IMG/VR virus record: IMGVR_UViG_3300022871_000857
Coordinates: 1-62,962 of that record
Source: a virus
DNA length: 62,962 bases
Direction: 5' to 3' (one strand)
Shown: positions 2,869 through 60,189 of the stretch, piece by piece
Position numbering within the stretch: the first letter of the stretch is position 1
How the letters are laid out: every line of letters starts with the position of its first letter
Program-made: the position numbers and the translations under genes
Notes under the pieces: model-generated
What the model saw: only the letters and a program-made list of their open reading frames with translations
What the model was told of the DNA's origin: nothing
The model's database searches: none

Positions 2869-4128
2869 ATGATACATTCATCTTATTACAGACCAATCGT
2901 ATCTCCGTATATCGGAGACGAAGTTAAAACTGAAATTGATAGAGTTCAAGATATGTCTGCTGGAATCACATTAAACAGAACAAAGTTAGAGGAGGTAGGT
3001 ACTGTAGGTATTATCAGTTGGAGACAAACATCTCCAAGTGTTGATTTAAGTCTTACCCAGTTAGAATACGGTTCACTTGAATTTTATAATCAATTAGCAA
3101 ATCAAGCCGTTAGTTCTGTTTCAGTACTTTTAACTAACTTTAAAACTTCTGCTGTTGATGTTGCAGCCTACAAAACTGATGATGATGCTACATTTTTAGG
3201 TACTGTTTTGTATCCTAAATTCAGAATTAGTGGACTGGGACTTAATATTGGGGATCCAGATTCAATGGTTGAAAGAACATTTAGTTTAGTTGGAGAAGAC
3301 GAGTTAATTTATCAAAATGATAATAAATATCTCATTAATGCGATAAAAACATGTGTTAGTGGAGAAACAGGAGACGTAAGTATAGTATTCGGTGCTTCTG
3401 GTACTGATTATGCTAATTATCCTGCACCAGTAGAAAATCCTGATGCCAGTGGTACTTATATGATAAGGGTAACTAAATATAGTTCAGGTACTTTAACTGA
3501 AATGGATTCTGGTAGTGCTTCAGGAGAATATGAATATACAACAGGTACTTCAACATTAGAATTACATGGTTGTGCAGTTGCGGACGTTTATAGAGTTTGG
3601 TATTCAGCTACTACTTATATTAGTGGTTCTGACCCATTTACATCTAATACAACTGATGCATTTAGTATTCCTGCTGAACAATGTAGTATTTATTTACAGA
3701 CTTCAGATTATGTTTATAGACTACAAAGCATAGGTATTGATATTAGCTTAGATAGATATGATGTTAAGGAAATTGGTAATAAAGAAATTGTAGCTAGAGG
3801 TGTTAAAGATGTAACTACTAGTATTACTTTAGGAAGAATTCTTGAAGAATATACTATAGAAGAAGTTTTAAGAGGCGTTGCGGCAACATATGGTTTAATT
3901 GATGTTAGAGAGTTCTTAGATGATGTTGTTTTAACTGTATACTGCTATAGCACAACAACTAAAGCAGTTGGCGATTTCTTAATAGGTTATAGGTTTATTG
4001 GTTTATCGCCAGTATCTTTAGATGCTGGAATACCGTTAAATGATTACGTCACCAGAGGAGTAACTATGGAAGGCGAAGAAGCTATGATTTCAACTGATAA
4101 AACAACTTTAGATGCTTATTCAGGATAA
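2869..4128 (+). CDS. major tail tube protein with inserted domain
   Basis: A 419-residue protein in the position of the major tail protein, behind the strongest ribosome site of the region. N- and C-terminal parts have the strand-rich pattern of tail tube proteins. A middle part (~residues 180-270), rich in Gly, Ser and Thr with repeated YMIRVTKY/TYISGSDP strands, looks like an inserted decoration domain. It should polymerise into the tube around the tape measure. The hairpin after the gene would lower downstream expression, as expected for a highly expressed tube gene. Confidence 0.7.
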   Translation: MIHSSYYRPIVSPYIGDEVKTEIDRVQDMSAGITLNRTKLEEVGTVGIISWRQTSPSVDLSLTQLEYGSLEFYNQLANQAVSSVSVLLTNFKTSAVDVAAYKTDDDATFLGTVLYPKFRISGLGLNIGDPDSMVERTFSLVGEDELIYQNDNKYLINAIKTCVSGETGDVSIVFGASGTDYANYPAPVENPDASGTYMIRVTKYSSGTLTEMDSGSASGEYEYTTGTSTLELHGCAVADVYRVWYSATTYISGSDPFTSNTTDAFSIPAEQCSIYLQTSDYVYRLQSIGIDISLDRYDVKEIGNKEIVARGVKDVTTSITLGRILEEYTIEEVLRGVAATYGLIDVREFLDDVVLTVYCYSTTTKAVGDFLIGYRFIGLSPVSLDAGIPLNDYVTRGVTMEGEEAMISTDKTTLDAYSG

Positions 4129-14994: not shown

Positions 14995-15681
14995 ATGAGA
15001 TATAATACAACTAAAAACAAATTACATAAATTAACAAATAAATATACAAAACATCTTAATGAACTGTTAAAAAAGCTAAAGAAGAAACCCCTTAAAAAAC
15101 AGAGATTAAATTTATATGAAAAACCTATAGTATATGAATCTGATTTTGAACTTCCCTATGTTTTACATGAAAGAAATAGAAAAGATATATTTGTAAATTT
15201 AGTCACAGACGCACCTTTGGATTTTCAATATGCAGAAAAATATGTCGAAATTTTTTATTATCCTGAAGGAAGTTATGGGAGGGTTTTATTAAATACATAT
15301 AATAGGAGAGAATACGATATTTATAATAAAAGAGGAAGTCATAATACCGAAGATATGATTGATGTTTATATTTTTAATAAAGATTTTGAATATACCTTTT
15401 ATAATATACCAGAAACTTTAATTGATTATGTAGAAACAGCAATAGTTTTGGATAAGGAAGTTGATTTCCCGAATTCAGAAATAGTAACACCGGAAGGTCT
15501 AAGCATACAGTCTATACCAACATTTCAAATAAAACAAACAGAAGCACAAGAAGAATTAGGGTTTGTTGACTTAATTGTTAGAGATGGATTTTCTAAAGTA
15601 GTTAATACCTTAGATAGTCCAGATTGGATTCCAACTGATTTTAAGGTTAAAATGATTGTTTCTCTTATAAATCCCTTCTAA
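14995..15681 (+). CDS. tail-tip protein, LINPF family member 3
   Basis: A 228-residue protein with a very basic first 40 residues, a beta-rich centre (VNLVTDAPLDFQYAEKYVEIFYYP) and the ending VKMIVSLINPF, a shortened version of the two preceding proteins' ends. It is the last plus-strand gene. Its 3' end overlaps the convergent minus-strand gene by 17 bases. Confidence 0.55.
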   Translation: MRYNTTKNKLHKLTNKYTKHLNELLKKLKKKPLKKQRLNLYEKPIVYESDFELPYVLHERNRKDIFVNLVTDAPLDFQYAEKYVEIFYYPEGSYGRVLLNTYNRREYDIYNKRGSHNTEDMIDVYIFNKDFEYTFYNIPETLIDYVETAIVLDKEVDFPNSEIVTPEGLSIQSIPTFQIKQTEAQEELGFVDLIVRDGFSKVVNTLDSPDWIPTDFKVKMIVSLINPF

Positions 15682-16258: not shown

Positions 16259-16309
16259 TGTGACAGATTGTCACAGAAATCCTATCCTTTGTGTGACAAA
16301 TTAGTCACA
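16259..16309. promoter_or_regulatory. tandem palindromic operators
   Basis: TGTGACA-GAT-TGTCACA is a perfect palindrome at 16259-16275. A second site, TGTGAC-AAATTA-GTCACA, lies at 16292-16309. Their centres are about 33 bp (three turns) apart, as expected for cooperative binding of a dimeric repressor or activator. No obvious regulator gene is adjacent, so a host or distant phage protein may bind. Confidence 0.6.
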
Positions 16310-16325
16310 ATTTGCTTTAATTTGC

Positions 16326-16427
16326 ATTCCCTCTGGTCAGGTGCTTTAACCGTTCCTGACAAGTACACCTTAAAGGTGTTTGTGTGTGGGTCAATCTTAG
16401 CGTTTACCATTACGCCACAGAGGGAAT
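16326..16427 (-). ncRNA. tRNA-like cloverleaf RNA without encoded CCA
   Basis: A perfect 10-bp closing stem (16326-16335 with 16418-16427) encloses a D-arm-like hairpin with a standard stem and loop (GCGT-AATGGTAA-ACGC on the minus strand, 16415-16400). A second hairpin is ACACC-TTTAA-GGTGT (16379-16365) and a third GTCAGG...CCTGAC (16360-16336) has a 13-base loop and stacks on the closing stem. It starts 8 bases after the CCA of tRNA-Tyr, so both are probably processed from one transcript. The arms deviate too much for a normal tRNA, and no CCA follows. A degenerate tRNA or a tRNA-derived RNA fits best. Confidence 0.55.
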
Positions 16428-16435
16428 GGTTGGTT

Positions 16436-16517
16436 TGGTGGGTGTGCCTGGAGTTGAACCAAGTTGATGGCTAGAACGGTTTACAGCCGTCCCCCTGACC
16501 GTTAGGGCATCACACCC
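16436..16517 (-). tRNA. tRNA-Tyr (GUA)
   Basis: A class II cloverleaf: acceptor GGGTGTG/CACACCC, D-arm with GG, anticodon loop CTGTAAA giving anticodon GUA, an enlarged variable region, T-arm CTTGG-TTCAACT-CCAGG, A73 and an encoded CCA (16438-16436). Positions 8-9 read AT rather than the usual TA-type residues. It probably supports translation of Tyr-rich late proteins. It lies downstream of the glycosyltransferase gene on the same strand. Confidence 0.9.
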
Positions 16518-50660: not shown

Positions 50661-53600
50661 TTATTTTCTTCCTACGATTAAATATTCATGGGATTTAGCA
50701 GTTATTTTTCTGTCTTCAACTTGACTTGCAAAACAATTATGGCAAATAATTCCTTCTGCAATATAAGTGTGATTTTTATTTATTTCTAAATTATAAACAT
50801 AATCATTGAATTTATTTTTTTTCATAGATACTATGCTTCTAACAGTTATATCTCCTATTTTAAAATCATATCGTTTAGTTGTATTTTGGGTTATTTTTTT
50901 ATTAAATGTTTTTTCAACAAAATCTATACATTTATTTTCCGCTAATCTTATTTGATATGTTTTATTTTTACTTAATTTGGGATAATATTCTCGTAAATAA
51001 AAACTATAACCTATGCTTCCTAACAATGATTGAGTTTCTTTTATTAATATTTCATTAGAAACACCAAATGAAATATCGTTACCAGTTAAACATCCATCCC
51101 CACGAAACAGACCTATAAGTAAATTTTCTTTTATGTTTTTATTAGAAATAAAAATATGTTTAGGTATACTTTTTTTATCAAATCCTTTGCCTAAATAACA
51201 ATCAAAGAATTCTGCTAAAATACTACTATAAATATATATTGTACTCCATTTACCTATTTTAGAATTTTTAATTATACTTTCTAATCCAAATAGTTCTTTT
51301 ACTAAATTACAAACGTCTGTAATATAATTAATTTCTTTCTCATGAAAAGTAAATCTAAGACCTTTACTATTAGAACATCCTTCACTCAAATAATAACCAA
51401 TCAAACGAGCAAATTTTTCATCTATTTTTATTTTATTTGGTATATATTTTAGATTTTTTTTGTTTAATTTAAAACATATTTTATTGTTCTTTAAAATATA
51501 TTTTTCTGTTTTTATATAATTGAAAACATTTAAAAATATATTGTTTTTTTCAATAGTACTGCTTTGTGTTGATATAAAATCCCCCTCTTTTAATTCACTT
51601 ATTTTATACCATTTTAAAATCTTTTTATTTAATTTGTTCTTACAACCCGAACAACTCTTACCAGAATAACCAAAACAACTTCGGGTTTTGTCTTTATAGC
51701 AAACTAAATCTTTTCTTTTTATAGATAATACAGGATGTTCTCCTGTTATTTTAATATTATCACATAATCCTTTTACTTTTAAATCTATAATATCGTTTTC
51801 TTTTCTTTTAAATACTTTTGAAACCTTCTGTAATTTTCCGACATCAGTAAATACTTTTTCTCCTACTTTTATATCTCCTATATTTTTATATCCGTTTTCA
51901 GTTAAAACTTTAGTATTAAAACTAAAACAGGCTCCCATAGCACTCGCCCACTCCACAACAATTATATCGTGCATATTAAATCCTGCTTTTTTAAATAATT
52001 CTATAACATCAGAATGATAGGTATATAAAATACCGTTTTTTCTAAAATCATTTACATTAAAAATACAATATTTATCTCTTTTTAATACTCTATGACATTC
52101 ATTAACTACTCTTCCTAGTCCATTTAAAAATTCTCCATATGAATGATTATATCCTAACTGTTCTTTTTCATCCCCATAGTATTCTAAATCCCAATAAGGT
52201 GGCGAATTGCCACACCAACAACCTTTACCTTTTCTCCTAACAAATAATTTTTGATTTGGTATAGAACAACAATAAACAAATCCATCATATTTTACTTTAT
52301 TTATTTCTGTAATTTGCCTTTCACATCCATTACCAATAACAATACTATATGAGTCATGTTTTTTAAATATTTCTCTTCCTCTTATAAACTTCCTTCCACA
52401 ATCTACTCTTTTTTGCATATTAGCTTTTTTACCTAGTTTAATAACTAATTCCATAAAGTCGGTTGCTAGTTGAGCAGATGAAGTAAAATAAGTATTATTG
52501 GCTCCTTTGCCATTTCCATCTCCTAACATTAAAGAATTAAATAAACAAATTAAATATTTTCTATCTAAAGATAAAAATTCTTTGGGGATATATTTTTCAT
52601 ATGACTTCCCAAGTGGGTTTAAATATAAATATAACTGTTTACTATTAAACGAAAGAGTATCTTTTTTGATTGTTCCTTTAAATCCATATTTGCTCATTGT
52701 CTTTTTAATATTTTCTAAGACCTTTATATCTCTTTGGCAAATACTAACAGAGTAATTGCTTCCTTTTTTTAATTTCCCTTGTTTTCTATTATAATAACAC
52801 CATCCCTCAGATATATACCAACCTAAAAATGTCATCCAGTCTTCCATAAGTATATGGTTGTCTTTTCTTATGTGGTTTTTTTCAGTAATAATACTCGGCA
52901 ATATAAAAAAATCTTTATTTACTCCAATCCAATTAGCAGACATCTTAATTTTATCTTGCTTTTTACATTTAGTAACATTTAATAGCTCATAATCTTTTTT
53001 ATGACGTTTGCGAATATACATATTATGATTGGGAGTTACTAATAAATTAAATCCTTTTTTGTTTATTACTTCATACATTATTCCTTTATATTTATTTTTC
53101 TGTATTTCAATTAATTTAACATAAATTAAATTATCTCCTTCATCTAAAGTTGCAATTTTATCAATCATTTTTAAATTTTTAAATAACTTAAATCCCCCGT
53201 CTGTTAATACTTCTGTATCATCTGAATAACATGTATAACACATGTCCATTGAATTGTCTTCTTCATCTAATTTTTCAGATGATTGTTCTTTAAGAGTAAT
53301 TGTATTTGAAGGTGTAAATATTAATTTCTGATTTCCTTTGCCCATTATTTCATCTTTAACAGTATTATTAAATTTCATAAACTCTTTACTAACATCATAC
53401 CCAATATAATCTCTCTCTAATTCATATGTTACTTGCATACGAGAATTGTGTCCACAATTTTTAACAATAACTCCATTAGCAACAAAATTATGGAATTCTT
53501 CTACATTCATATTGTATGTATCTATTTTAGTTGGATATTCTTCTACTGATTTAACAGTATGATTATAATTAAATCTTTTTGTAGAGATATTAATAACAGT

Positions 53601-54782
53601 ATTTTTATGAACACCCATTTTTAATGCTATTTTTTCATATGAAAGATTTCCTTCAGATATTAAATGTTGTATTTGATTTACATATGTTTTATTTTTACGT
53701 TTCTTCCAGGATTCACTCATCTTTTTCTTTGTTTCAAAACTATGTTTTCCCCCAACATTTCTTCCTTTACTTGCAATTCCTATCTGTTTTTTTGTTACTG
53801 TTGAATGTTTTTTACCAAAAAAAGGATTTTCTAATCCTGTAAATATTTTAGATAAATGTTTTTTCTGTTCATCTGAAGGAATATACATTATTTTACCTTC
53901 ATGATGCATTTTAGAATGTTTTCCAAAATCCTTTACTTTTAAATTTTCTACACTATCGTTAGTAATATCTTCATCTTTATGATGCACACATTCAATAAAT
54001 TCTTTGGTTTTTAATTTCCGACCTAATATTTCTTGCATTATAAAAATACTCTGTCTCATATATTTACCATTATTTAATCCTATTATCCATCTACCAGATT
54101 GCTTATGTATTTTTCTATAGAAGGGCATTAAACTATCTCCTGATTTCAATAATTTAGCTTCTATATATTTGCCGTTTCTAAGCATAAATTTATGGTCTGG
54201 AGTTACAAATATACTATTGTCGTTATCTAACTTTACTTCCAATACAGTTGCATTTATTCTTGTTTTGCGTATTTGATTTGCTTTACGTAACCTTAATTGC
54301 ACTCCATCACTACAATATACATATGGTTCTTGTCCGACTAAATTTTTAATCGGGAAGTCACCATTTGGAGTTGAAATTATTGTATCTCCAGATACACACA
54401 TTGGGTCTAAAACTGTATCTCCTTTTTCAGAATAAAACAATACTATTCTTCTGGCTAGTGCAGGAGGAAAAGTAGATAACCCACCATCTTTACCTCTAAT
54501 ACTTTTAGATGAAGCATTGTAAGCTTTCCATTGTTGCTGTGATTTCTTTTCAACTTCTTTTTTAGTTCCGTCTTGTAATTCTATTTCTACCTTATGACCA
54601 TAGCTTAATTTCTTATGTTTCTGTATTGCAATATTATGTTGTTTTTTAGCTTCAAGTTCTATAACGTGTTTACCCCAAGAATAGTCTGGTTTATAAATAC
54701 TTTTAGGTATTTCTCCGTATTTAGATAATATCTGACTTCTAATTTCTCTTGACTTTACTAAACTTTCATCATTTTTACCCAT
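50661..54782 (-). CDS. DNA (N4/N6) methyltransferase interrupted by three inteins
   Basis: A 1,373-residue precursor. After removal of three inteins (129-442, 518-859, 952-1349) a 319-residue methyltransferase remains. Its motifs are an X-like STFPPALARRIV (~103), SAM motif I VLDPM-CGHN, catalytic motif IV T-SPPYWDL, and a C-terminal part CFASQVEDRKITAK. SPPYW is typical of N4-cytosine enzymes; motif order is X-I-IV. Each intein sits inside a catalytic or SAM-site element, so activity depends on splicing. It likely protects phage DNA from host restriction. Confidence 0.9.
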   Translation of the reverse strand: MGKNDESLVKSREIRSQILSKYGEIPKSIYKPDYSWGKHVIELEAKKQHNIAIQKHKKLSYGHKVEIELQDGTKKEVEKKSQQQWKAYNASSKSIRGKDGGLSTFPPALARRIVLFYSEKGDTVLDPMCVSGDTIISTPNGDFPIKNLVGQEPYVYCSDGVQLRLRKANQIRKTRINATVLEVKLDNDNSIFVTPDHKFMLRNGKYIEAKLLKSGDSLMPFYRKIHKQSGRWIIGLNNGKYMRQSIFIMQEILGRKLKTKEFIECVHHKDEDITNDSVENLKVKDFGKHSKMHHEGKIMYIPSDEQKKHLSKIFTGLENPFFGKKHSTVTKKQIGIASKGRNVGGKHSFETKKKMSESWKKRKNKTYVNQIQHLISEGNLSYEKIALKMGVHKNTVINISTKRFNYNHTVKSVEEYPTKIDTYNMNVEEFHNFVANGVIVKNCGHNSRMQVTYELERDYIGYDVSKEFMKFNNTVKDEIMGKGNQKLIFTPSNTITLKEQSSEKLDEEDNSMDMCYTCYSDDTEVLTDGGFKLFKNLKMIDKIATLDEGDNLIYVKLIEIQKNKYKGIMYEVINKKGFNLLVTPNHNMYIRKRHKKDYELLNVTKCKKQDKIKMSANWIGVNKDFFILPSIITEKNHIRKDNHILMEDWMTFLGWYISEGWCYYNRKQGKLKKGSNYSVSICQRDIKVLENIKKTMSKYGFKGTIKKDTLSFNSKQLYLYLNPLGKSYEKYIPKEFLSLDRKYLICLFNSLMLGDGNGKGANNTYFTSSAQLATDFMELVIKLGKKANMQKRVDCGRKFIRGREIFKKHDSYSIVIGNGCERQITEINKVKYDGFVYCCSIPNQKLFVRRKGKGCWCGNSPPYWDLEYYGDEKEQLGYNHSYGEFLNGLGRVVNECHRVLKRDKYCIFNVNDFRKNGILYTYHSDVIELFKKAGFNMHDIIVVEWASAMGACFSFNTKVLTENGYKNIGDIKVGEKVFTDVGKLQKVSKVFKRKENDIIDLKVKGLCDNIKITGEHPVLSIKRKDLVCYKDKTRSCFGYSGKSCSGCKNKLNKKILKWYKISELKEGDFISTQSSTIEKNNIFLNVFNYIKTEKYILKNNKICFKLNKKNLKYIPNKIKIDEKFARLIGYYLSEGCSNSKGLRFTFHEKEINYITDVCNLVKELFGLESIIKNSKIGKWSTIYIYSSILAEFFDCYLGKGFDKKSIPKHIFISNKNIKENLLIGLFRGDGCLTGNDISFGVSNEILIKETQSLLGSIGYSFYLREYYPKLSKNKTYQIRLAENKCIDFVEKTFNKKITQNTTKRYDFKIGDITVRSIVSMKKNKFNDYVYNLEINKNHTYIAEGIICHNCFASQVEDRKITAKSHEYLIVGRK
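50736..51929 (-). mobile_element. intein 3 of the methyltransferase (LAGLIDADG type)
   Basis: 398 residues. It starts CFSFNTKVLTENG (block A), has a TGEHPVLSI block B histidine, a LAGLIDADG pair (LIGYYLSEG, LIGLFRGDG), and ends HTYIAEGIICHN before extein Cys. An unusual Cys cluster (SCFGYSGKSCSGC, ~83-96) lies in the splicing domain and could bind zinc. Canonical residues C1, HN and C+1 suggest it can splice. Confidence 0.93.
52206..53231 (-). mobile_element. intein 2 of the methyltransferase (LAGLIDADG type)
   Basis: 342 residues. Starts CYSDDTEVLTDGG; block B TPNHNMYIR; endonuclease motifs FLGWYISEG and LFNSLMLGDG; ends RRKGKGCWCGN before extein Ser. The last two residues are Gly-Asn rather than His-Asn, a known variation in phage inteins with a WCGN|S ending. 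It splits T-SPPYW, the catalytic motif. Confidence 0.93.
53457..54398 (-). mobile_element. intein 1 of the methyltransferase (HNH/NUMOD type)
   Basis: 314 residues. Starts CVSGDTIISTPNGD; block B TPDHKFML; the middle carries an HNH-type nuclease (CVHHKDEDITNDSVENL), NUMOD-like segments (NPFFGKKHS) and an HTH (YEKIALKMGVHKNTV). Ends FHNFVANGVIVKN before extein Cys; penultimate Lys instead of His. Its endonuclease class differs from the other two inteins in the same gene. Confidence 0.93.
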
Positions 54783-55937: not shown

Positions 55938-55969
55938 TAATATAGAATAAAAATCACCAATGGCAATTA
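55938..55969 (-). promoter_or_regulatory. bipartite promoter-like motif, second copy
   Basis: TAATTGCCAT (55969-55960), 12-base spacer, TTCTATATTA (55947-55938): both halves and the spacing are identical to the recA leader. The upstream half overlaps the clamp-loader stop codon; the ATG of the gene it serves is 21 bases downstream. Confidence 0.65.
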
Positions 55970-58081
55970 CTTTTTTTCTTTTCTTATTTTACATAACATA
56001 TTGAAAAATAAAGAGTTATAGTCATATACACCCCCAACTCTTTCCTCAATATTGATTATTTCTTCAAAATATTTGATTAAAATATCTTCAGGTATATCTC
56101 CTGCTATTTTTTCGTATGTTTTTACCCTATAAGGAGCTACATTTGTTAGTGGCATATTCATTTTTATTTTTAGACAAGTCATAAGGTCATACTTTAAAAA
56201 ATTAATAAAAGTATTAATATCAGGATAATTTTGTTTCCAACCAAGAAATGATTTCCATATTAATGTCAAATCTTCTCTTGCAACTCCATCTAAGAAATCA
56301 ACATTTACTTCATCAGAAAGAAATTCTCTTATATCTCCTGAATTACTATATTGTTCTAACAGATGTATCGCTTGTCTTAAATTTGTATCAGAATTCCTTG
56401 CTATTGTCCATATCGTTTTTTCATCTACATCCATTTTTAATTCTTTTGTTAGTTCTTCTATTCTATCAAATATATCTTTCCATCTAATAGGATTAAGCTT
56501 ATATGTCTGACATCTTGTTTGTATTGTTTTTAATACTTTGTTTAATTCAGTTGTGCATAAAATCCAAATAAAATCATTAGATGCATCTTCTAGTGGTTTA
56601 AGTAAACAATTCCAAGCCGGCTTGGATAACATATGGCAATTAGAGACAATATTGCTTAACCCTAAACTATAATTATTTCCAACTAGAAAATTATGATTAT
56701 CTTCAACCTCAATATCAAATACTTCTACAGTCCATTTATGTTTTTTGTAATCAATATTTTTAATTTTGGCTGGTTTTATTTCATAAGATTTAGTACAATT
56801 ATTAAAAAAGTCATTATCAAAAGGCAACAAATCCCCTGCTAATTTATATCTCATGGAGGGAATAACATAGGGACTTATATTTTTAAATAATTTTAAACTA
56901 CTTTCTTTTGAAAATCTAATAGAAGGATATTTACCTGTAATATAGGCTGTATTTTTTAATTTAAATTTTTTGTTAAGAAACATAGAAAACATTTTTACTT
57001 CTTCATTAGAAAAACCACAAATATGTAAATGTGCATTTCCTGATTTAGACATACTTCCATCGTCCATATATAAAAAAGCTAAACTAATATAAGTAAATTG
57101 ATTAAATATTTTTTTATTAATATATTTTTTCTTATTTTTATAAATAAGAGGATAAATATCTGTTAAAAACCATGAGCTTTTTGTATTGTAACCTGTAAAT
57201 TTATCTCCAAAAGTATCTTTATTTATTCTGTCTGTGGTTGATAATTTACTACAGTCTATTACTTTAGATATTATGTCCCTTTTATATGTAATATATTTTA
57301 ATTGTTTATAAGAATGATTCATTTTTAATCTTACTGTATTTTTCATTTTTCCTAAATAGCCATCTCCAAGTATTGTTCCTAATAAAACCTGTTTAATATT
57401 TGAAGGAATTTTATTCCTAATTTCATATATTATAGATTTCTTTTGTAGTTTGTCCGCTCTTTTATATCCCTTATCTGTAAGTATTTTATGATTATCTGTA
57501 CATGTAAATTTGTTACCATGTTGGGTTTTAATAGTAATTGTTTTTTGTAAATTTACTTTTTTTCTAAAATAACCTATAATTTTTTTGGATTCAATTTTAT
57601 TTGTTTTTAAATTATAAGAAAGAACTTTTTTTTCTTTTTTATGTTTTACTATATTTCCAATTTTTTCATATGTCATATCTTCAAGAAGAACAGGAGTAGA
57701 ACCTAAAAAACATTCATCAAGTAAGATACCTTTATATTTAGATATTGGAGATTTATAGTATATTTCTTTACTTAATGTCCTAATATCATCTATACCTCTA
57801 TTATCAGAAGCATTTATTTCAAGTAAATCAAATTTGAAATTTAGACATGAAGGACATTTTAGACATGGATTCCCTTCTTTTGATAAATCTTGACAATTTA
57901 AACTCATAAAAAACAATCTAGCTAAAGTAGTTTTACCTATGCCACTTTTACCTGAAAACAAATATGAATTAGCTAATCCTTTTTTATTTATTGCTTGTGA
58001 TTTCAATATCTTCACAACATGTTCTTGACCTTTAATTTCATTCCATTTTATTGGTCTGAAAATATTATTAAAATCTTTCAA
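55967..58081 (-). CDS. clamp loader ATPase (DnaX/RFC-like) interrupted by an intein
   Basis: A 704-residue precursor starting with TTG at 58,081 behind AAAGGAG. Spliced length is 346. It has Walker A GKSGIGKTT (44-52), a zinc module CLKCPSC (73-79), Walker B LLDE|CHM split by the intein, SRC-like QTRCQTY and sensor segments, and a helical collar. It loads the clamp made at 28,031. It is the first gene after the tRNA-Leu-like RNA and its strong promoter. Confidence 0.92.
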   Translation of the reverse strand: MKDFNNIFRPIKWNEIKGQEHVVKILKSQAINKKGLANSYLFSGKSGIGKTTLARLFFMSLNCQDLSKEGNPCLKCPSCLNFKFDLLEINASDNRGIDDIRTLSKEIYYKSPISKYKGILLDECFLGSTPVLLEDMTYEKIGNIVKHKKEKKVLSYNLKTNKIESKKIIGYFRKKVNLQKTITIKTQHGNKFTCTDNHKILTDKGYKRADKLQKKSIIYEIRNKIPSNIKQVLLGTILGDGYLGKMKNTVRLKMNHSYKQLKYITYKRDIISKVIDCSKLSTTDRINKDTFGDKFTGYNTKSSWFLTDIYPLIYKNKKKYINKKIFNQFTYISLAFLYMDDGSMSKSGNAHLHICGFSNEEVKMFSMFLNKKFKLKNTAYITGKYPSIRFSKESSLKLFKNISPYVIPSMRYKLAGDLLPFDNDFFNNCTKSYEIKPAKIKNIDYKKHKWTVEVFDIEVEDNHNFLVGNNYSLGLSNIVSNCHMLSKPAWNCLLKPLEDASNDFIWILCTTELNKVLKTIQTRCQTYKLNPIRWKDIFDRIEELTKELKMDVDEKTIWTIARNSDTNLRQAIHLLEQYSNSGDIREFLSDEVNVDFLDGVAREDLTLIWKSFLGWKQNYPDINTFINFLKYDLMTCLKIKMNMPLTNVAPYRVKTYEKIAGDIPEDILIKYFEEIINIEERVGGVYDYNSLFFNMLCKIRKEKK
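56639..57712 (-). mobile_element. intein in the clamp loader (LAGLIDADG type)
   Basis: 358 residues (124-481). Starts CFLGSTPVLLEDM, block B CTDNHKILT, endonuclease motifs LLGTILGDG and LAFLYMDDG, ending DNHNFLVGNNYSL...NIVSN before extein Cys. The penultimate residue is Ser, not His, and about 8 residues are inserted between blocks F and G. Splicing may be slow or conditional. It splits Walker B (DE|CH). Confidence 0.92.
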
Positions 58082-58102: not shown

Positions 58103-58233
58103 TGAACTGTAAGCAGGATTCGATACCTGCATAATTAGCTTCAAATGAGTATTATATCCCGAGAACTTCAGCTCATAAGACTAATTCGAGGTTTGGTTAC
58201 CGTCTTGTGCGTCTAGTTCCGCCACTACAGTTC
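58103..58233 (-). ncRNA. tRNA-Leu-like RNA with enlarged loops
   Basis: The 5' half (acceptor GAACTGT, then GTGGCGGAAC...AGACGCACAAGAC) closely resembles bacterial tRNA-Leu but lacks the D-loop GG. The anticodon stem AAGAC/GTCTT (58206-58202 with 58181-58177) closes a 20-base loop instead of 7. A long arm (ATGAG...CTCAT, AATTAG...CTAATT) replaces the variable arm. The T-arm GCAGG/CCTGC has an 8-base loop TATCGAAT. The acceptor closes with ACAGTTC, A73 and no CCA. Total 131 bases, driven by a perfect promoter. Confidence 0.65.
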
Positions 58234-58299: not shown

Positions 58300-59319
58300 T
58301 TATTTTGTTTTCTTTTTAAACTTATCATCATATGGTTTAAGTATACTATCTTCATTTAAATGATTTAATACTAAATCTTTTACTACTTTTCTCCTATCAT
58401 TACTCCATTTTAAATAATTTGCTATTTTCTCTACTATCTCTGAACCTAGTCTAGCATGGTGTATATAGTTACTCCTATCAACCTTATTTGTTCTTACAAA
58501 CGGCTTTGCTATATCATGTAATAAAGCAGACCACCTTAAATTTAAGTCTTTAGGAGTAGAATAAACAACCTGTTTTGTATGTGTCCATAAATCATAGTCA
58601 TGGTATTTACTATTTTGATTATAATCTAATTGTAATGCTAGTTCAGGAATCATAAAGTTAAATAATCTGGTTATCATTAAAAAATCTAATCCTAAATTAA
58701 TATTATCTGACAACAATAACTTATCTAGCTCTATCATCCATCTTTCTTTACTTACTGTTAATATTCTATAATTAAGTTCTAATGTTTTTTTCCATATTGC
58801 TTCATCTACATTTATTAGTTTTAATTGAGAAATAAATCTAGCGGCTCTTAACATTCTCAATGGGTCTTCCTTGAATCTTAATTTTGTATTACCTACACAT
58901 TTTAATGTTCTTGTTTCCAAATCTTCTCTTCCATTAAAGGGGTCTATATATTTATTTCCTATTTTGGCTATTGCATTAATAGTAAAGTCCCTTCTACTTA
59001 AATCAGAATGTAGGTCTTTTACAAATTCTACATTTGGTTTTCTACAATTCCTTTTATATTCTTCAGTTCTAAATGCTGTTAATTCTATATAATTCCCTTC
59101 AATTTTAACACCCAAAGTACCAAATTTTTTGCCAATTAAATATGCCCTCCTACCCTCGTTTTTGATTGCCTTTTCAATCTCGTCAGGAGAAAAGGGACAA
59201 GCAAAATCATAATCTTTTGGTTCTACTCCTATTAATTCATCTCTAACGCAACCCCCTACAGCATAAACAGGATATATGATTTTTTTAACTTTATTATATA
59301 TATATTGTAATTTTGTCAT
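58300..59319 (-). CDS. cca: CCA-adding enzyme / poly(A) polymerase-type tRNA nucleotidyltransferase
   Basis: A 339-residue class II nucleotidyltransferase. It has VYAVGGCVRDELIG with PKDYDFAC (the GG and DxD motifs, ~18-42), RRDFTINAIA (~108-117), ERWMIEL-type neck elements, and a C-terminal HD domain (LLHDIAK, ~267). It adds or repairs 3'-CCA on tRNAs. It lies directly upstream of a tRNA-like RNA that lacks CCA, while the two ordinary tRNAs here encode it. Confidence 0.92.
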   Translation of the reverse strand: MTKLQYIYNKVKKIIYPVYAVGGCVRDELIGVEPKDYDFACPFSPDEIEKAIKNEGRRAYLIGKKFGTLGVKIEGNYIELTAFRTEEYKRNCRKPNVEFVKDLHSDLSRRDFTINAIAKIGNKYIDPFNGREDLETRTLKCVGNTKLRFKEDPLRMLRAARFISQLKLINVDEAIWKKTLELNYRILTVSKERWMIELDKLLLSDNINLGLDFLMITRLFNFMIPELALQLDYNQNSKYHDYDLWTHTKQVVYSTPKDLNLRWSALLHDIAKPFVRTNKVDRSNYIHHARLGSEIVEKIANYLKWSNDRRKVVKDLVLNHLNEDSILKPYDDKFKKKTK

Positions 59320-59450
59320 TTAACATCTACCCATATTTTATGATTTATAATATTGCTAATATTTTGAAAACATACCCCATATTTTTGAGCAATATCAACT
59401 ATTTTTAATTTACCTTTTAATTGTCTTATTTCTTTTACTTTATTTAACAT
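59316..59450 (-). CDS. 44-residue helix-turn-helix protein
   Basis: A small basic protein whose VDIAQKYGVCFQNISNIIN is a helix-turn-helix of the type found at the end of HNH homing enzymes. It overlaps both neighbours (11 and 4 bases). It may be the remnant of a homing endonuclease or a small regulator of the RNA-end genes. Confidence 0.55.
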   Translation of the reverse strand: MLNKVKEIRQLKGKLKIVDIAQKYGVCFQNISNIINHKIWVDVK

Positions 59451-60189
59451 TCCAATATTCCTCCAATAACCTTATTTGTAGTTTATTTATCTCTTTAGTG
59501 TTAGCTGTTTTTTGAAGGTCTGATTTAACATAAGCCATATCTATTAGTTTTTCAAGTTCATTGGTTTTATTTAATACCCAATCTAAACTATATTTTCCTA
59601 TTTTTATATCTCTAACCAAATTATTCTGTGGTAAAGGAAATTGTAGTTTACCTTCAACTAGCATATCTAATCCTTCCAAAAGCAATCTTATTAGATGTGA
59701 AGCAAATTTAGTATCGTATCCAAACTTTAAAGCTAATTCTTTTCTACCTGTCATATTCTCTTTCTTTATTTCCAATTTCTTTCTTTGTGCATAAGCATAA
59801 CCTTTAAATGTATGATATGATTTTTTAGATATAAACAAATGATAATTATCTAATAATTCTTGTCCAAATTTATCACATTCTAATAAACACTTATCATTAA
59901 CAAAAAACAGTTCTACTATATTAGGATTATTCTGTATAGCTAAATGTATAAACTTAATTAAAGAATAAATAGTATAGTCTATATCTCCCTTTAAATTCTT
60001 TACTGTCTGTGGCGTTTTAGTTGACAATATTACTTGTTCACATTTGTTTATTCCTAATACATAATCTTTAGTAGGTATGAATATTCCCATAAAATCTTCA
60101 TCTGAATTTTTAGTATGAGTTCCATATAAATGAGAGCCAGTTCTTATTTTTATTATTTGATTTTGATTTGCTAATTCTTTTTCTTTCAT
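59440..60189 (-). CDS. RlaP-like nucleotidyltransferase
   Basis: A 249-residue protein with the pol-beta nucleotidyltransferase signature GSHLYGTHTKNSDEDFMG (~18-35), where G-S and D-x-D bind nucleotide and metal, then a helical domain (GRKELALKFGYDTKFASHLIRLL). This is the DUF4269/RlaP type associated with RNA ligases in phages and bacteria. It is three genes from a CCA-adding enzyme, so nucleotide addition to RNA ends is plausible. No RNA ligase is in the window. Confidence 0.75.
   Translation of the reverse strand: MKEKELANQNQIIKIRTGSHLYGTHTKNSDEDFMGIFIPTKDYVLGINKCEQVILSTKTPQTVKNLKGDIDYTIYSLIKFIHLAIQNNPNIVELFFVNDKCLLECDKFGQELLDNYHLFISKKSYHTFKGYAYAQRKKLEIKKENMTGRKELALKFGYDTKFASHLIRLLLEGLDMLVEGKLQFPLPQNNLVRDIKIGKYSLDWVLNKTNELEKLIDMAYVKSDLQKTANTKEINKLQIRLLEEYWNVK

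What the first reader, a model, noticed from the sequence alone, without database searches (positions are those of the whole stretch)
16326..16427. Second tRNA-like cloverleaf, processed next to tRNA-Tyr, also with expanded loops and no CCA
A perfect 10-bp stem, a canonical D-arm-like hairpin, a central hairpin whose loop could be read as CUUUAAG (UUA in anticodon position), and a T-side hairpin with a 13-base loop. Its GUGGCG-AA...ACGC-AAGA segment aligns with the start of the RNA at 58,103. Two odd tRNA-like RNAs in one phage suggest a common type rather than chance decay.
Basis: partly seen in the sequence, partly recalled or inferred. Interest (0 to 1): 0.62.

Follow-up and report, generated by a model that had tools for sequence, protein, structure and literature searches.

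The report
Anticodon-less tRNA-like phage RNA
Right after a tRNA gene this bacterial virus encodes an RNA that has the ends and D-arm of a leucine-type tRNA but no anticodon, a divergent relative of a large and apparently unannotated group of such RNAs in viruses, including well-studied laboratory phages.

Summary
On the minus strand, 7 nt after the CCA of tRNA-Tyr, lies an RNA (16424-16328; stem extended to 16428/16325) with a 7-bp acceptor stem, U8-G9, a complete tRNA D-arm (A14, G18, G19, A21), the linker UAAGA..., one hairpin, and a 6-bp T-side stem with a 13-nt loop. It has no anticodon stem. The 'UUA anticodon' is a palindromic hairpin where a variable arm would sit.

It is not a lone oddity. 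Scans of viral contigs gave dozens of RNAs with the same Leu-type frame but no anticodon arm, often two to four per locus. They occur unannotated in SPP1, phi3T, SBSphiJ and Goe3, and covariation supports the frame and, in one family, a pseudoknot. A covariance model built from 20 of them, none from this phage, ranks the window's two RNAs first and second (58231-58105, E 1e-7; 16424-16328, E 1e-4; next 0.47).

Our RNA is a divergent member: its T-side loop lacks UUCRA and it has no close homologue. The phage encodes a CCA-adding enzyme, so lack of an encoded CCA is not evidence of decay. Most likely it is excised and stabilised as a tRNA but does not decode. Its function (decoy or scaffold) is inferred.

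The parts
16325..16428 (-). tRNA-like RNA, whole, with extended 11-bp acceptor stem
   Evidence: Fold z -4.1 to -4.2; only G/C-rich 11-bp inverted repeat of its spacing; coordinates
16418..16424 (-). 5' strand of the 7-bp acceptor stem CCCUCUG (continued outward by CAUU 16425-16428)
   Evidence: Pairs with 16329-16335
16400..16417 (-). U8, G9 and D-arm GCG-UAAUGGUAAA-CGC with A14, R15, G18, G19, A21
   Evidence: Sequence; with the following UAAGA one mismatch in 24 nt to class RNA L057; R1 match
16380..16399 (-). Unpaired linker UAAGAUUGACCCACACACAA in place of the anticodon arm
   Evidence: No 5-bp stem can start here; UAAGA is common in the class
16365..16379 (-). Hairpin ACACC-UUUAA-GGUGU, in the position of a variable arm
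   Evidence: Fold
16336..16360 (-). T-side stem GUCAGG/CCUGAC (6 bp) with 13-nt loop AACGGUUAAAGCA, directly stacked on the acceptor
   Evidence: Fold; stem lengths 7+6 as in the Bacillus-phage subtype; loop not found in other tRNA-like loci
16328..16335 (-). 3' strand of the acceptor stem plus A in discriminator position; no encoded CCA
   Evidence: Sequence
16436..16517 (-). tRNA-Tyr (GTA) with encoded CCA, 7 nt upstream of the RNA
   Evidence: ARAGORN; RF00005 31.5 bits
58105..58231 (-). Second RNA of the same type in this phage (acceptor extended to 10 bp, 8-nt T-loop UAUCGAAU, D-loop without GG)
   Evidence: R1 42.9 bits, E 1e-7
58300..59319 (-). CCA-adding enzyme (tRNA nucleotidyltransferase), upstream of the second RNA
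   Evidence: Pfam PF01743, PF12627, HD; NCBIfam CCA tRNA nucleotidyltransferase, below the curated cut-off
59440..60189 (-). RlaP-type RNA-repair nucleotidyltransferase
   Evidence: Pfam PF10127

Best explanation
It is a non-decoding, tRNA-framed small RNA of the phage. It is read in one transcript with tRNA-Tyr and cut out by the host's tRNA-processing enzymes. A CCA tail is probably added by the phage's own CCA-adding enzyme, and the compact D-arm and acceptor/T-side stack keeps it stable. The anticodon arm is absent; the space between D-arm and T-arm holds a different payload, here a linker and one hairpin. It is a divergent member of a widespread phage RNA type with Leu-type frame. Most likely it acts as a tRNA mimic that occupies a tRNA-binding protein (a host tRNase or another tRNA-handling factor) rather than as an adaptor in translation. 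Shown here: the fold, the frame, the absence of an anticodon arm, the relation to the type, and the presence of the CCA enzyme. Inferred: transcription, processing, CCA addition and the decoy role.
For: Frame and fold far above chance. Covariance model R1 from 20 viral RNAs, none from this phage, ranks 58231-58105 first (E 1e-7) and 16424-16328 second (E 1e-4), next 0.47; tRNA-Thr of the window scores only 10.9 bits. The 62 non-canonical candidates listed include more than 50 credible ones with a recognisable T-loop (54). In 20 of them the frame covaries: 10 of 15 pairs with two-sided changes, covariation 0.415 against 0.139 in shuffles (acceptor and T-stem pairing were selection criteria, so this is partly circular). 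In the Bacillus-phage family 98.5% of cells pair, and helices not used for selection, including a pseudoknot, show two-sided changes. Zero of 52 counted odd RNAs encode CCA. CCA enzyme and RlaP are present; a CCA enzyme also lies beside L067/L122, which carry several odd RNAs. The D-arm motif with UAAGA is on only three contigs in 84,980 bacterial and archaeal genomes, none of them a normal tRNA.
Against: No homologue of this particular RNA was found, so its own helices have no covariation support. The R1 match rests on the acceptor and D-arm; the T-arm was skipped as a local end, and RF00005 does not match at all. Its 5' half also resembles some phage tRNA-Asn genes. No expression data. The decoy role is a guess from the general theme of phage tRNA biology.
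Confidence: 0.55

Rival explanations
1. A decaying tRNA pseudogene: a former tRNA (Leu or Asn type) whose middle and T-loop have been scrambled.
For: T-loop without UUCRA; no anticodon; singleton; 5' half 22 of 24 identical to phage tRNA-Asn.
Against: Acceptor stem perfect and longer than normal (11 bp), T-side stem 6 perfect pairs, all conserved D-arm residues kept. The same kind of missing anticodon arm is seen with covariation in many other viruses, and this phage carries two such RNAs.
Confidence: 0.2
2. A processing or punctuation hairpin: its only job is to be a tRNA-like cut site between tRNA-Tyr and the downstream 130-aa gene, or a stop and stability element for the transcript.
For: Lies between tRNA-Tyr and the next gene on the same strand; tRNA-like folds are RNase P and RNase Z substrates (established knowledge).
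Against: 270 nt separate it from the gene; no T-run on the minus strand and no minus-strand terminator call; a complete D-arm is not needed for a cut site.
Confidence: 0.15
3. A functional tRNA with an intron or an unusual anticodon arm (UUA, reading UAA).
For: CUUUAAG could be drawn as an anticodon loop with U33 and A37.
Against: No anticodon stem next to the D-arm, no split-stem halves; stem ACAC/GUGU sits 20 nt away from the D-arm; too short for a group I intron.
Confidence: 0.04
4. Chance hairpins in a G/C-rich patch or a plus-strand terminator.
For: The plus strand folds as well (-43 kcal/mol), and a weak terminator-like call exists on it.
Against: Frame expected 0.003 per shuffled window; the plus strand has no tRNA D-arm logic; convergent genes meet at 15681, 650 bp away.
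Confidence: 0.06

Closest known systems
Phage T4 stable RNA C (species 1 RNA), NC_000866 70908-71046
   Same: Small RNA downstream of phage tRNAs with a tRNA T-arm (CCGGGTTCGAATCCCGG) and no anticodon; annotated as small stable RNA. R1 matches part of it weakly (21.9 bits, E 0.008).
   Different: No Leu-type D-arm frame by eye; our RNA has the D-arm but not the T-loop.
tRNA-Leu (class II tRNA), Rfam RF00005
   Same: 7-bp acceptor, U8, D-arm GUGGCG-AA-GGUA-ACGC, a hairpin in the variable-arm position; T4 tRNA-Leu scores 40 bits with R1.
   Different: No anticodon arm, 13-nt T-side loop without UUCRA, no RF00005 match.
tmRNA (RF00023)
   Same: tRNA-like end without an anticodon; a true tmRNA lies beside a class RNA in L018.
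   Different: No reading frame or tmRNA match; a real D-arm; far shorter.
Unnamed Leu-frame RNAs in other phages (SPP1, phi3T, SBSphiJ, Goe3, WC29P3, D6E and many metagenomic viruses)
   Same: Acceptor, U8-G9, D-arm and linker; no anticodon arm; no encoded CCA.
   Different: Most have T-loop UUCRA, UGCAAAU or UAUCRAAU; middles are larger, some pseudoknotted; ours has a unique loop and an 11-bp stem.

Membership tests
Phage Leu-frame anticodon-less RNA type (defined here) | 7-bp acceptor stem next to U8-G9 and D-arm TGGYGNAA...ACRC | tested here: met
Phage Leu-frame anticodon-less RNA type (defined here) | No anticodon arm following the D-arm | tested here: met
Phage Leu-frame anticodon-less RNA type (defined here) | T-side stem of 5-6 bp stacked directly on the acceptor | tested here: met
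Phage Leu-frame anticodon-less RNA type (defined here) | T-loop of a known kind (UUCRA, UGCAAAU, UAUCRAAU) | tested here: not met
   Loop AACGGUUAAAGCA; not a strict requirement, as some members carry large T-loop inserts
Phage Leu-frame anticodon-less RNA type (defined here) | Significant covariance-model match | tested here: met
   29.7 bits, E 1e-4, second in the window; T-arm not part of the match
tRNA (RF00005) | Match to the family model and an anticodon arm | tested here: not met
tmRNA (RF00023) | Match to the family model, tag reading frame | tested here: not met
Stable processed RNA with CCA end | Discrete RNA with added CCA in infected cells | not testable with these tools
   No expression data; a CCA enzyme gene is present

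The most novel reading that the evidence does not exclude
Tailed phages of many kinds carry an unrecognised class of anticodon-less RNAs built on a leucine-type tRNA frame with exchangeable payloads, including pseudoknots. Because leucyl-tRNA synthetase of well-studied bacteria does not read the anticodon (established knowledge), these RNAs may be leucylated or serve as tRNA decoys against host tRNA-targeting defences. The RNA at 16326 would be a stripped-down, diverged form.
Probability: 0.4. Interest if true: 0.85.

Novelty: new variant of a known kind. Interest (0 to 1): 0.6.

Why it matters
Annotation tools pass these RNAs over: ARAGORN called none of the class members examined, most were not reported by Rfam, and the phage records have no feature for them. 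Yet they recur in unrelated phages, often several per locus, and the helices are kept by compensatory changes. Members sit in laboratory phages of Bacillus subtilis (SPP1, phi3T, SBSphiJ, Goe3), so the question of what a tRNA without an anticodon does for a phage becomes directly testable by deletion and RNA sequencing. A link to tRNA-targeting defence would tie it to a very active field.

Tried and rejected
DNA homologues of the RNA in phage records: none. Homologous loci through the tail protein or DNA polymerase: only a near-identical 25.5-kb fragment of the same virus that lacks this region. Pattern scans for the exact D-arm gave L002 (another odd tRNA-like RNA) and L057; the same D-arm with UAAGA in bacterial genomes: none. 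T-side loop pattern: three unrelated hits. Archaeal host with split or intron-bearing tRNAs: considered because of inteins, PolB and a Prim-Pol protein, rejected because of bacterial DnaN, RecA and Shine-Dalgarno-like leaders. An H-type pseudoknot in the middle of this RNA: none found. A 6-bp pairing of linker UUGACC with T-side loop GGUUAA can be drawn, but a hand estimate (about 0.3 by chance) makes it uninformative. Alignment A4 contained a hand-typed wrong row and was discarded. Literature searches found no description of this RNA type in the held open-access library; the SPP1 genome paper has no mention of tRNA. The library is incomplete, so novelty is not proven.

Full report
What is there. 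The window is a 63-kb record of a low-G+C (27%) tailed phage with bacterial-type replication genes. On the minus strand, tRNA-Tyr (16517-16436, with an encoded CCA) is followed after 7 nt by the RNA in question. Read 5' to 3': CAUU-CCCUCUG (acceptor, extended), UG (positions 8-9), GCG-UAAUGGUAAA-CGC (D-arm with A14, R15, G18, G19, A21), the linker UAAGAUUGACCCACACACAA, the hairpin ACACC-UUUAA-GGUGU, ACUU, the stem GUCAGG/CCUGAC with loop AACGGUUAAAGCA, then CAGAGGG-A(AUG). It folds at -35.4 kcal/mol, z -4.1. No five-pair anticodon stem can be drawn next to the D-arm, so the proposed UUA anticodon has no arm to sit on.

More than chance. The D motif occurs twice in the window. Both copies have a 7-bp acceptor and an adjacent T-side stem, against 0.003 such frames per shuffled window, and the extended stem is the only G/C-rich 11-bp inverted repeat of its spacing. 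The motif was written after the class was seen, so the comparison is not fully independent.

A common type. Some are coding sequence, but many have a complete acceptor, D-arm and T-arm with 40-130 nt of other structure where the anticodon arm should be. A wider scan over all held loci listed 62 non-canonical frames against 35 with a canonical tRNA; a handful of the 62 are chance frames in coding DNA, and 54 with a recognisable T-loop and length under 190 nt were kept for the helix census. Several loci carry two to four (L028, L067, L094, L097, L085). Named phages carry them without annotation or under a hypothetical protein: phi3T, SBSphiJ, Goe3 and relatives share one RNA across temperate Spbetavirus and lytic Herelleviridae (75-82% identity), and SPP1 (between genes 9 and 11), WC29P3, D6E, PK3.5, KLEB27-1, BUCT082 and zrk29-2 have others. 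In genomes of 84,980 bacterial and archaeal species the D-arm motif with UAAGA is on only three contigs, all metagenome bins and none of them a normal tRNA; at least one sits beside phage-like genes.

Structure is maintained. In the Bacillus family 98.5% of pair cells hold and five pairs have two-sided changes. Two of these lie in a helix that crosses another one, so the payload there is a pseudoknot; those helices were not used in finding the sequences. In 20 metagenomic RNAs 10 of 15 frame pairs have two-sided changes, although acceptor and T-stem pairing were selection criteria there. Class T-loops are UUCRA in most, UGCAAAU in the Bacillus type, UAUCRAAU in the RNA at 58,103 and in L085; five members carry inserts of tens of nucleotides to about 100 inside the T-loop. 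Members with a D-loop lacking GG (58,103, L085, L114, L031) also lack a normal T-loop, as expected if the two loops touch.

Does our RNA belong? Model R1, made from 20 RNAs of other viruses, finds 58231-58105 (42.9 bits, E 1e-7) and 16424-16328 (29.7 bits, E 1e-4), then nothing better than 0.47. The match of our RNA uses the acceptor and D-arm; its T-arm is skipped. With the following UAAGA its D-arm differs from that of L057 at one of 24 positions. Stem lengths 7+6 equal those of the Bacillus subtype. Both RNAs of this phage share an acceptor extended to 10-11 bp, seen in only four of 52 odd RNAs. It therefore looks like a divergent, stripped-down member, with the T-loop as the feature not met.

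How it may work. The phage encodes a CCA-adding enzyme and an RlaP-type RNA-repair protein, none of the 52 odd RNAs counted encodes CCA, and a related CCA enzyme lies beside L067/L122, which carry several odd RNAs. The simplest reading is a natural tRNA scaffold: tRNA-processing enzymes cut, tail and stabilise the RNA, and the payload or the frame itself binds a protein. Because leucyl-tRNA synthetase does not read the anticodon in well-studied bacteria (established knowledge), charging with leucine is possible. Phage tRNAs are known to counter tRNA-targeting defences (PMC11555353, abstract), and a CRISPR effector that cleaves tRNA tails has been reported (PMC12851939, abstract), so a decoy role is plausible but untested.

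Known or new. T4 stable RNA C is the nearest described object. Fourteen loci scanned against Rfam gave matches to the general tRNA model for a few class RNAs only. No paper describing the type was found, but the library is partial. The individual RNA is rated a new variant of a known kind; the class, if confirmed, would deserve more.

Noticed in passing
   Followed up: yes
L143 397-506 (SPP1 X89721 about 3423-3532): SPP1 carries a Leu-frame anticodon-less RNA between genes 9 and 11, apparently unannotated, with a possible pseudoknot; a second, tiny tRNA-like element (acceptor plus T-arm GCGGGTTCAATTCCCGG) follows it.
   Followed up: partly
L143 about 370-396 and L126 about 1085-1110: The sequence AGGGTTCGGGG(A/T)TAGCCCGGACGA precedes the odd RNA in both SPP1 and SBSphiJ7, although the phages are unrelated.
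   Followed up: no
L024, L065, L074, L092, L121: Class members with an insert of tens of nucleotides to about 100 inside the T-loop, always starting TGACT(A/T) and ending before CAAAT.
   Followed up: partly
L002 11428-11533 (-): Another tRNA-like RNA with intact acceptor, D-arm and T-arm but no usual anticodon arm, in an unrelated virus; not called by ARAGORN.
   Followed up: partly
window 16260-16311: Two tandem palindromes TGTGAC-N5/6-GTCACA between the RNA and the 130-aa gene, possibly operators.
   Followed up: no
window 50661-54782 (-) and 55967-58081 (-): DNA methylase with several intein segments (Intein_splicing, Hint, LAGLIDADG) and a clamp-loader protein with a LAGLIDADG intein.
   Followed up: no
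window 16436-16517 (-): The tRNA-Tyr is itself weak (RF00005 31.5 bits), with A instead of U at position 8.
   Followed up: no
L147 7504 on the reverse strand: A class RNA on a Clostridia metagenome contig close downstream of nrdD-like and nrdG-like genes, with a recombinase nearby.
   Followed up: no
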